The position numbers and the translations under genes are program-made. Of a DNA stretch of 64,000 nt, positions 7,053 to 9,435 are shown piece after piece (position 1 is the first letter of the stretch; each line of letters starts with the position of its first letter). Source of the DNA: Candidatus Avelusimicrobium gallinaceum (GTDB lineage Bacteria; Elusimicrobiota; Elusimicrobia; Elusimicrobiales; Elusimicrobiaceae); assembly GCA_944324965.1 (NCBI GenBank), contig CALUYH010000005.1, forward strand, positions 1 to 64,000, read 5' to 3'. Under the pieces are notes generated by a model. That model saw nothing but the letters and a program-made list of their open reading frames with translations, was not told the DNA's origin and did no database searches.

Positions 7053-7803
7053 AAAACTGCGCCTGGATATGGCCTTGGTGGAAAAAGGGTTTTTCCAAAG
7101 CCGCAACCGCGCGCAGGCCAGCATTATGGCGGGCGAAGTGGTCGTAAACGGTGAGGTGGACACCCGCGCCGACCGCACCGTCCTGCCGGAGGACGTAATT
7201 GCGCTCAAAGAAAAATCCTGCCCGTATGTATCGCGCGGCGGGCTGAAACTGGCAGGCGCGATGAAAGCGTGGAACATCGACGTAAAAGGCAAAGTGTGCG
7301 TGGATATTGGCGTGGCCACGGGCGGATTTTCCGACTGTATGATACAGGCCGGTGCCAAAGACGTGTACGGCGTGGACGTGGGCAAAGGGCAATTGGCCGA
7401 CGAAATGCGCCGTTATAAAAATTTCCATTTTAAGCCCGAAACCAACGCCCGCTATATGACGCCCGATTTGTTTGAGCAGGCCCCGCAGTTTGCGGCGGTG
7501 GACGTGTCGTTTATTTCCTTAACGATGATTATGGAACCGTTGTTTAACGTGATGGCAAACGAAGCGGAAATCGTATTTTTAATTAAACCGCAATTTGAAC
7601 TGACGCCCAAACAAGTGCCGCACGGCATTGTAAAAACGGAAGAAAACCGCCAACTGGCCATCAAGCGCGTGCAGGATTATTTTGAAGAAAACCTGAAAGA
7701 GAAATACGGCGGCACCTCGGGCGAAGTGATAGAAAGCCCCATCAAGGGAACCCACGGCAATACCGAATACCTGTGGCATGTAAAATTAAATAAGCCTGCG
7801 TAA
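7042..7803 (+). CDS. tlyA: TlyA-type rRNA 2'-O-methyltransferase
   Basis: A 253-residue protein: an S4 RNA-binding domain (about residues 1-65, with RLDMALVEKGFFQSRNRAQASIMAGEVVVNG) followed by an FtsJ-like Rossmann methyltransferase (VDIGVATGGFSDCMIQAGAKDVYGVDVG is the SAM site; VSFISL and the KPQFEL motif follow). Family members methylate 16S and/or 23S rRNA cytidines. The start at 7042 follows GAGGG; a longer upstream frame has no support. It overlaps xseB, as in many genomes where xseA-xseB-tlyA are neighbours. Confidence 0.93.
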   Translation: MPNKKLRLDMALVEKGFFQSRNRAQASIMAGEVVVNGEVDTRADRTVLPEDVIALKEKSCPYVSRGGLKLAGAMKAWNIDVKGKVCVDIGVATGGFSDCMIQAGAKDVYGVDVGKGQLADEMRRYKNFHFKPETNARYMTPDLFEQAPQFAAVDVSFISLTMIMEPLFNVMANEAEIVFLIKPQFELTPKQVPHGIVKTEENRQLAIKRVQDYFEENLKEKYGGTSGEVIESPIKGTHGNTEYLWHVKLNKPA

Positions 7804-7822
7804 AATTTATTTGAAACTTTTT

Positions 7823-8323
7823 CTATTCTACAATTGGCCAACGGGGTTTGCCTGTTTCTGGATCTTGTTTATTTACATCTGCCCCCAAAGAAATGCAAAG
7901 TTTTCTTCCAAAGGCATAATTTTCCGTGTGGTAACCGGCATCTGTTCCGCATACGATACTGTATCTTCCCGTAGAAGCATAACGGTACGCTAGTACATAT
8001 TGTCTTTTCTTGGACTTAACTCCTACTGAAGTATTAGGTGCAAGAATATAATCAAAATTTTTACTTTCCGGCACTTCTACATCTAACTCATCAAAATCAG
8101 CAGCATAAGCGCCATTCGCCATATAATAAACTTCTTGTGCGTCGCGTAAACTTTTCAGCACACTCAGCGGTTCCGCCGCACGGGCTTTTTCTACCGCCAA
8201 TTCATATTTGGGCAGCGCCACCGCCGCCAAAATACCAATGATTAACACCACCACTAATAACTCTATTAGCGTAAATCCGGCGTTTTTCCCCGCCGGGTGG
8301 GTTTTTTGATAAATTTTGCTCAT
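7823..8323 (-). CDS. Type IV pilin-like protein (PilE-type)
   Basis: A 166-residue pilin with a short leader ending in Gly and the prepilin peptidase site G|FTLIE, followed by one hydrophobic helix (FTLIELLVVVLIIGILAAVA) that anchors and polymerises the subunit, then LPKYELAVEKARAAEPLSVLKSLRDAQEVYYMANG. Two Cys in the C-terminal part could form a disulfide. The gene stands alone, convergent with tlyA. The ATG at 8323 is preferred to a TTG two codons upstream. The start codon lies in the loop of a perfect hairpin (8302-8343). Function as major pilin or pseudopilin cannot be decided here. Confidence 0.9.
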   Translation of the reverse strand: MSKIYQKTHPAGKNAGFTLIELLVVVLIIGILAAVALPKYELAVEKARAAEPLSVLKSLRDAQEVYYMANGAYAADFDELDVEVPESKNFDYILAPNTSVGVKSKKRQYVLAYRYASTGRYSIVCGTDAGYHTENYAFGRKLCISLGADVNKQDPETGKPRWPIVE

Positions 8324-8343
8324 AGCCAAAATTTATCAAAAAA
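8302..8343 (-). promoter_or_regulatory. 17-bp perfect inverted repeat around the pilin start codon
   Basis: Arms at 8302-8318 and 8327-8343 are exact reverse complements, with an 8-base loop (8319-8326) that contains the ATG of the pilin gene. The arms are AT-rich with runs of T and A at the outside. In RNA this would present or hide the start codon; in DNA it could be an operator. Confidence 0.75.
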
Positions 8344-8365
8344 AAAAAACAAATCAAGGGGCGAG

Positions 8366-8815
8366 CCGCCCCTCCCCTTCCTTTACCCGTTAACACGACT
8401 AATTGAGCCACACTATTTCCGCCCTGTCGCTCTCTCATGCAACGGCCCTTCCAGGCCCCTTGCCGGGGGCAGGCTTTTTGGCCCCGGCCAAGGGGTTGCC
8501 TAATACGGTGCTTACGCCATAGGGAACAACTTGTTGGAAATGTTTACGCAAAAGAGCCAGCGGCCGCCCCTCCCCTACCTTGCCAGGGGCAGGCGCTCTA
8601 TGCCCGCCAACACGACTAGAGGGGCCACAGTGTTTTTGGAATGTTGCGCCTATACGCAACGGCCTTCCATGCCCGGGAGCTCTTCCTCGAACAGGGTTCC
8701 GCCTAATACGGTGCTTACGCCATTAGGGAACAACGGGTTGGGGATGTTTTTGCCAAGGGCCAGCGGCTGGCCTCACCCGCTAGCGCGCTATTCTTGCCTG
8801 TATTTTGGGGCATAA
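8366..8815 (-). repeat. Tandem, diverged about 0.2-kb repeat with decayed coding traces
   Basis: This fills the gap between the pilin gene and pth. Two copies start with AACACGACTA at 8392 and 8609 (217 bases apart) and share GCCTAATACGGTGCTTACGC at 8498 and 8701 (203 bases apart). The block GCCGCCCCTCCCC (8366, 8563) is also repeated. On the minus strand both copies encode the peptides GVSTVLG and N(S/T)VA(Q/P)LVVL(T/A)G, but stop codons and a one-base difference near 8520 (CCATAGGG against CCATTAGGG) break the frames. No intact gene, terminal repeat or transposase is seen. Confidence 0.7.
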
Positions 8816-8823
8816 ATTTTACA

Positions 8824-8874: not shown

Positions 8875-9435
8875 TCAGTTAAACGTATTCATCGCTTTTT
8901 CCAGCCCTTGCGATAAAATCATTTCCAATGCGTCCACCGCGCGCGCCAGCGCGTCGTCCAGGGCGGGCTGATCCGCCTTGGGAAAATTGGACAGCACAAA
9001 GTTGGCCAGGTCAAACTTTTCGGGCTTGGGGCCGATGCCCAGCCGCAAGCGCGGAATGTCCTGCGTGCCCAGCTGTTCAATCACGCTTTTCATCCCTTTT
9101 TGGCCGCCGGCCGAACCGCTTTTGCGGATGCGCAGCTTGCCCACCGCCAGCGAAACATCGTCAAAGCACACCAGGCAGTTTTGCGGCGGGATTTTATAGA
9201 ACCGGGCCAAGCTGGATACAGCTCGGCCCGATTCGTTCATATAAGTAGAGGGTTTGATGAGAAAGACATCGTGCCCTGCCACGGTAACTTTTGCATACAC
9301 TCCCAGGTTCTGCCAGGTTTTCCATTCGGCCCCCCATTTGCGGGCAGCGGCGTCCAGCACCATAAATCCGGCGTTGTGGCGCGTATGCTCGTATTGGGAA
9401 CCGGGGTTACCAAGCCCTGCCAGGAGTTGCTGCAT
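8875..9435 (-). CDS. pth: Peptidyl-tRNA hydrolase
   Basis: A 186-residue enzyme that frees tRNA from stalled peptidyl-tRNA. Catalytic-site residues are present: N10 in GLGNPG, H20 in RHNAGF and D93 in FDD. The later GGHNG segment of most homologues reads GGQKG here (residues 110-114), so the usual Asn that contacts substrate is Lys. It is the last gene of the glmU-prs-rplY-pth operon, three bases after rplY, the same order as glmU-prs-ctc-pth in Bacillus. Confidence 0.96.
   Translation of the reverse strand: MQQLLAGLGNPGSQYEHTRHNAGFMVLDAAARKWGAEWKTWQNLGVYAKVTVAGHDVFLIKPSTYMNESGRAVSSLARFYKIPPQNCLVCFDDVSLAVGKLRIRKSGSAGGQKGMKSVIEQLGTQDIPRLRLGIGPKPEKFDLANFVLSNFPKADQPALDDALARAVDALEMILSQGLEKAMNTFN

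What the first reader, a model, noticed from the sequence alone, without database searches (positions are those of the whole stretch)
8366..8815. Decayed tandem repeat of about 0.2 kb with conserved peptide traces
Two diverged copies (starts 8392 and 8609) fill the gap between the pilin and pth. Both still encode GVSTVLG and N(S/T)VA(Q/P)LVVL(T/A)G on the minus strand. The spacings (217 and 203 bases) are not multiples of three, stops interrupt both copies, and a one-base difference near 8520 shifts the frame. This looks like a duplicated, formerly translated element, or an interspersed repeat family whose protein-like pattern survives. I know no named family with these peptides.
Basis: seen in the sequence. 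Interest (0 to 1): 0.55.

Follow-up and report, generated by a model that had tools for sequence, protein, structure and literature searches.

The report
Repeat array beside swappable pilin genes
The two odd repeats are not a dead gene but part of a noncoding, hairpin-bearing repeat array that sits just in front of pilin (surface-fibre) genes in a group of uncultured bacteria, where array and pilin gene appear to be traded between species.

Summary
The repeat is real. It belongs to an interspersed, noncoding family found in 19 of 66 searched genomes of one Elusimicrobiales genus. Three modules recur: A (with a covarying hairpin), B and S (long palindrome). Of 46 A/B clusters, 39 run on the pilin strand into a pilin-type gene within 300 nt, 4 do not, and in 3 the held DNA ends first.

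'Formerly translated' fails: A-to-B phase is random (9:8:5 of 22), there is no three-base periodicity, and one-base indels are shared by many copies.

Pilin plus array is a 1.01-kb block in the tlyA-pth gap, absent in close relatives G013 and G020 and replaced by another pilin with A modules in G007. G062 carries nearly the same block between more diverged genes. At a second locus array and pilin body reassort separately among five species.

Best reading: mosaic intergenic repeat arrays flanking exchangeable pilin loci, working like neisserial NIME arrays without shown kinship. A role for the arrays is inferred. A poly-T promoter-like element varies from T10 to T16 at one locus, suggesting phase variation (untested).

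The parts
7803..8816 (.). whole extra block (pilin gene plus array) relative to the empty tlyA-pth gap of genome G013
   Evidence: G013 aligns up to 7802 and from 8817 only
7823..8323 (-). type IV pilin-like gene, 166 aa from the ATG at 8323-8321
   Evidence: longer ORF from TTG at 8329; Pfam N_methyl and Pilin_GH above cut-off
8302..8343 (.). perfect 17-bp inverted repeat (arms 8302-8318 and 8327-8343) with the start codon in its 8-nt loop
8334..8357 (-). element P, TTGATTTG-T12-GATA, promoter-like; the T12 tract is 8338-8349 (as A on the + strand)
   Evidence: promoter reading is inference
8358..8372 (-). hairpin GGGGCGGCTCGCCCC closing the first A module, next to P
   Evidence: stem covariation
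8363..8430 (-). A module copy 1 (core); covariance model match 8356-8445
8481..8551 (-). B module copy 1 (holds the GVSTVLG trace)
8595..8649 (-). A module copy 2 (core); covariance model match 8577-8662
8681..8753 (-). B module copy 2 (holds the GVSTVLG trace)

Best explanation
The feature is a noncoding mosaic of short repeat modules (A with a hairpin at its end, B, and elsewhere the long palindrome S). It forms the 5' flank of a type IV pilin-like gene in an Elusimicrobiales genus. Shown: within the genomes searched the modules are confined to the genus; they mostly lie on the pilin strand just upstream of a conserved promoter-like block P and a near-identical N-terminal coding block; array and pilin are shared between species, together or separately, in a way that contradicts the divergence of the neighbouring genes. 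Inferred: the repeated arrays, the P block and the N-terminal block supply homology at which incoming or paralogous DNA recombines, so that fixed intergenic sites swap their pilin. The A hairpin is kept as a structure; whether it helps recombination, stops read-through transcription or binds a protein is not known. The protein-like traces are a by-product of shared DNA.
For: 19 of 66 genus genomes carry A and 0 of 16 other-genus genomes of the order matched the window array. 39 of 46 A/B clusters precede a pilin on the same strand; in G000, 8 of 9 clusters of the covariance model's 17 best matches do. Frame not kept. Hairpin: 88.8% of 348 cells paired on 58 copies, 87 cells changed on both sides against 36.2 in shuffles, 27-58% paired when slid. 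Block present or absent at tlyA-pth. G062: bins of 96-100% inside the block, 82-99% and mostly near 90% outside. C19 locus: 525 bp of array 99-100% identical in three species whose upstream gene is 82-93% identical, while the pilin body follows another pattern. Three more shared sites hold different pilins in G000 and G020.
Against: Pilins without arrays are also replaced, so arrays may be passengers. Array-bearing clusters without a pilin exist (4 of 46). Only three array loci were followed across species; one of them, C3:132k, could not be judged because the G062 contig ends 42 bases after the match. All genomes are assemblies in contigs, and contigs break at these repeats: the G062 tlyA-pth locus lies on two contigs and the first A module was not aligned there.
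Confidence: 0.65

Rival explanations
1. Cis-regulatory region: the modules bind a regulator or form terminators or attenuators that control the pilin promoter; exchange together with the pilin is hitch-hiking.
For: Fixed strand and position 5' of P; structure-conserving changes; a perfect hairpin ends within 3 nt of P at 39 of 64 sites against 1.6 in mononucleotide shuffles.
Against: No A/B profile hit was found before most P-type pilins of G000: 8 A/B clusters precede pilins against 21 P sites. Module number and order vary. Identity of 99-100% over 525 bp between species looks like recent transfer, not site-by-site constraint.
Confidence: 0.2
2. Transposable short palindromic repeats (MITE or REP-like) that spread on their own and are merely tolerated upstream of pilins.
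For: Many copies, palindromes, patchy distribution; some arrays without pilin. G002, a carrier, has a Y1 transposase gene.
Against: Strand fixed relative to the pilin in 39 clusters. No Y1 transposase match in carriers G000, G007, G011, G013 (4 of 5 carriers in that search). Terminal repeats and target-site duplications were not systematically tested; none caught my eye at the empty site.
Confidence: 0.12
3. Remnant of a protein-coding gene duplicated next to the pilin.
For: Peptide traces; one copy with an 82-codon open frame through A and B.
Against: Random A-to-B phase, no period-3 signal, no excess of stop-free copies over antisense frames; hairpin covariation instead.
Confidence: 0.03

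Closest known systems
Neisserial intergenic mosaic elements (NIME: dRS3 and RS repeats)
   Same: Mosaic intergenic repeat arrays beside genes of surface proteins, with pilin loci among them; suggested to promote recombination with incoming DNA (PMC3898611, passages read).
   Different: The dRS3 pattern ATTCCC(N8)GGGAAT given there is not the hairpin seen here; the modules here have a fixed strand and position 5' of the pilin promoter-like block. I did not search Neisseria genomes with the modules.
BOX elements of Streptococcus pneumoniae
   Same: Modular intergenic repeats with variable numbers of units and predicted stem-loops (PMC3049150, passages read).
   Different: Not tied to one gene family; the authors favour parasitic elements (abstract passage). 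Sequence kinship was not tested.
Gonococcal pilE/pilS antigenic variation
   Same: Pilin diversity by recombination, with a structured noncoding element upstream of the pilin gene (PMC3547852, passages read).
   Different: The structure there is a G4; 0 of 64 P sites here have a G4 motif in the 80 nt upstream. Here many loci have their own promoter-like block rather than one expression locus plus promoterless cassettes.
REP/RAYT palindromic repeats
   Same: Short intergenic palindromes in many copies (recalled).
   Different: Fixed strand relative to the downstream gene; no Y1 transposase match in 4 of the 5 carrier genomes searched.

Membership tests
NIME arrays | Intergenic mosaic of short repeats, concentrated beside genes of surface proteins | tested here: met
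   Modules A, B, S; 39 of 46 A/B clusters precede pilin-type genes
NIME arrays | dRS3 sequence pattern ATTCCC(N8)GGGAAT | not tested
   Pattern known from PMC3898611; not scanned for here; the A hairpin stems are different letters
NIME arrays | Adjacent gene shows raised exchange | tested here: inconclusive
   Exchange seen at two array loci, but array-free pilins are replaced too
BOX elements | Composite of modules with a variable number of inner units | tested here: met
   Variable A and B numbers between loci
BOX elements | Sequence kinship with boxA, boxB, boxC | not tested
   No BOX sequence was compared; Rfam scan of the window gave 0 matches at gathering threshold
REP/RAYT | Associated Y1 transposase in the genome | tested here: not met
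   No PF01797 match in G000 (nor G007, G011, G013); G002, another carrier, has one. G020, G023, G062 were not in that search
pilE/pilS system | One expressed locus plus promoterless silent copies | tested here: not met
   21 of 21 P motifs in G000 stand before separate pilin genes; promoter activity itself is inferred
pilE/pilS system | G4 motif upstream of the pilin gene | tested here: not met
   0 of 64 P sites; none in the window array on either strand
Decayed protein-coding gene | Reading frame conserved among copies | tested here: not met
   Phase 9:8:5 of 22; period-3 p 0.31 and 0.60

The most novel reading that the evidence does not exclude
A dedicated pilin-diversification system in an Elusimicrobiales genus: many intergenic sites per genome each carry a leaderless, poly-T-spacer promoter whose tract length switches expression, and hairpin-bearing arrays plus a frozen 5' coding block act as recombination joints that shuffle pilin bodies within and between species.
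Probability: 0.3. Interest if true: 0.78.

Novelty: new variant of a known kind. Interest (0 to 1): 0.55.

Why it matters
Pilins are said to be the only cell appendages encoded in the related family Endomicrobiaceae (PMC11257099, passage read). A repeat family tied to pilin loci, with signs of interspecies swapping and a length-variable homopolymer in a promoter-like spacer, would give a testable case of surface variation outside the classical pathogens. It also shows that matching peptides in two intergenic repeats need not mean a former gene.

Tried and rejected
Rfam at gathering threshold: 0 matches in the window. tRNA/tmRNA: 0. Y1 transposase as driver: no match in G000, G007, G011, G013, one carrier (G002) positive. 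Coding remnant. G4 analogue of pilE: 0 of 64. DNA-uptake idea: the window pilin hits Pfam ComP_DUS below its cut-off (22.6 against 27.3 bits); not pursued. Integron attC idea dropped without a test (recalled features only). An nhmmer profile of P found nothing; replaced by a pattern search.

Literature, PubMed Central library only: no paper held both 'Elusimicrobi' and 'intergenic repeat'. 'Elusimicrobium, pilin, type IV pili' gave 2 papers and 'Elusimicrobi, pilin' 14; judged by titles none is about such repeats, and I read passages of two. 'Elusimicrobium minutum, genome' gave 78 papers, 15 listed, none opened for this. The 2009 Elusimicrobium minutum genome paper (recalled) was not seen. 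So novelty in print is not established.

Dropped rows: of 82 A copies, 81 had references; 58 pass a motif filter for the common hairpin, 8 have another hairpin type, the rest neither. Alignment A1 used 43 of the 48 printed; of the 5 I left out by hand, 4 have a poor hairpin, so its 93.4% is flattering. I recounted on all 58: 88.8%. Model R1 rests on the 43. S rows (51) count both strands of a palindrome.

Full report
What is there. Between the pilin gene (7823-8323, minus strand) and pth (8875-9435, minus) lies a repeat array. The 450-bp region gives 8 further rows in the same 1.49-Mb assembly, G000, and matches in 7 of 41 genomes including G000 itself; 0 of the 16 genomes of other genera of the order match. 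A pattern from the B module, scanned once over the species-genome collection, hits 22 stretches, all in two MAGs: CALUQD01 (titled uncultured Elusimicrobiales) and CASFTM01 (the tool may leave out the window's own record). By equal contig lengths I take these to be G062 and G007. The window's own record is unnamed.

Modules. Profiles built on 91 held stretches (278 kb) give A (82 copies), B (31) and S (51 rows, a palindrome counted on both strands). In pilin-bearing stretches A and B lie on the strand of a pilin downstream of them. The A unit usually ends in a hairpin whose stem exists in several versions. On all 58 copies of the common type, 88.8% of 348 cells pair and 87 cells changed on both sides, against 36.2 in shuffles; sliding the partner by 1-3 columns drops pairing to 27-58%. 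A smaller hand-thinned set gave 93.4%. The sequences are related, so shuffle counts are not probabilities. A covariance model from the 43-copy set finds A in 19 of 66 genus genomes; in three of them (G007, G062, G073) the matches equal the 66 candidates scored, so these are lower bounds. In G000 it gives 19 rows; the best 17 fall in 9 clusters, 8 of them before a pilin.

Not a former gene. If A and B had been translated as one, copies should keep frame. A-to-B phase is 9:8:5 of 22, and the phase between two anchors inside A is 11:1:10. There is no codon-position signal. A one-base insertion in A is shared by many copies. The exception is C1:84.4k, where A and B sit in an 82-codon open frame.

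Company. Of 46 A/B clusters, 39 lead into a pilin-type gene within 300 nt on the same strand, 3 run off the stretch and 4 have no pilin. In G007, G020 and G023, whose stretches were chosen by array DNA and not by pilins, it is 31 of 37, with 3 and 3; these are part of the hits. Of the four exceptions, two are arrays beside orthologous polysaccharide deacetylase genes (G000 C3:112k, G020 C11), in a region that G013 shares. One precedes a GDPD gene. One, in G023, was not examined. G000 has 57 pilin-like matches, 51 of which my motif finds in held stretches.

Element P. In 19 of the 51 motif-found pilins of G000 the sequence TTGA(C/T)TNG, a T tract and GATAAATTTTG stands directly before the ATG, with a Shine-Dalgarno-like motif in 0 of 19; 26 of the other 32 have one. 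All 21 exact pattern matches of P in G000 stand before pilins (compared by eye). Read as -35 TTGACT, a spacer with the T tract and -10 TAAATT, transcription would begin at the start codon; this is inference. T12 dominates (47 of 65 held sites), which argues against free slippage, yet at the C19 locus five species have 15, 16, 10, 13 and 12. Assembly error in homopolymers is not excluded. P itself occurs in 21 of 41 genus genomes, wider than A in that some P carriers lack A matches. A perfect hairpin ends within 3 nt of P at 39 of 64 sites against 1.6 in mononucleotide shuffles; shared descent inflates this.

Exchange. At tlyA-pth, G013 (pth protein 99% identical) aligns to 7802 and again from 8817, lacking the 1,014-bp block. 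G020, G017 and G022 show no pilin between the two genes either. G007 has a different pilin with A modules in the gap; G044, G050 and G023 have other pilins there, without A or B as far as I see by eye, and G043 a pilin beside pth with tlyA not seen. G062 matches the window's pilin and array at 96-100% per 100 bp, against 82-99%, mostly near 90%, in neighbouring genes; but its locus is split over two contigs, may hold a second pilin, and 8358-8455 (the first A module) is not aligned. At C19, 525 bp of array are 99-100% identical among G000, G013 and G020, whose upstream gene is 93, 82 and 82% identical. The pilin body follows another pattern: G000 is 99% identical to G062, 95% to G020, 71% to G013 and 65% to G007; the arrays of G062 and G007 differ. 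So array and pilin separate, with joints near P and the N-terminal block. Three more shared sites hold different pilins (41-55% over the aligned part) in G000 and G020, with A or B found only in G020; at one of them the upstream flank is only 66% alike. At C3:132k only the pilin side could be compared: 97% over 571 bp with G062, whose contig ends 42 bases later; no other genome of the 66 passes the threshold used.

Mechanism. Shown: noncoding mosaic repeat, covarying hairpin, linkage to pilins, sharing between species that conflicts with neighbouring genes. Inferred: homologous recombination at repeated 5' sequence, perhaps after DNA uptake, which has been suggested for Endomicrobium (PMC8809381, passages read). 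Not shown: that arrays raise exchange, since pilins without arrays are replaced too.

Known relatives. NIME arrays of Neisseria are nearest in behaviour (PMC3898611, passages), BOX in build (PMC3049150, passages), and pilE with its upstream structured element in logic (PMC3547852, passages). Membership fails or is untested in each case, so I class this as a new variant of mosaic intergenic repeats.

Noticed in passing
window 8302-8343: The pilin start codon lies in the loop of a perfect 17-bp inverted repeat; of 17 G000 pilins with the exact left arm, 14 keep at least 15 of 17 bases of the right arm. An operator or other DNA-level signal inside the coding start is possible.
   Followed up: partly
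G000 C19, G013 C2, G020 C9, G062 C74, G007 C5 (L012, L231, L193, L237, L242): Poly-T tract in the promoter-like spacer has five lengths (15, 16, 10, 13, 12) in five species at one locus.
   Followed up: partly
L187 (G020 C6:379.6k): An S-A array precedes a glycerophosphodiester phosphodiesterase gene whose start also looks leaderless with a T-rich spacer (TTGTCA...ACACTAAGGTATG).
   Followed up: no
L011 (G000 C14:33.4-34.3k), L012: S modules and a second palindrome (GCCCTTTTTCTGGCG[C/T]CAGAAAAAGGGC) recur in the longer arrays; S differs between copies on both arms by eye.
   Followed up: partly
G000 C1:99818-100075 (L027): A pilin-like match with an internal TAA, perhaps a pilin pseudogene.
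   Followed up: no
G000 C3:112k, G013 C109, G020 C11 (L168, L232, L189): An array next to a polysaccharide deacetylase gene without its own pilin, in a region shared by three species; perhaps a relic of a lost pilin locus.
   Followed up: partly
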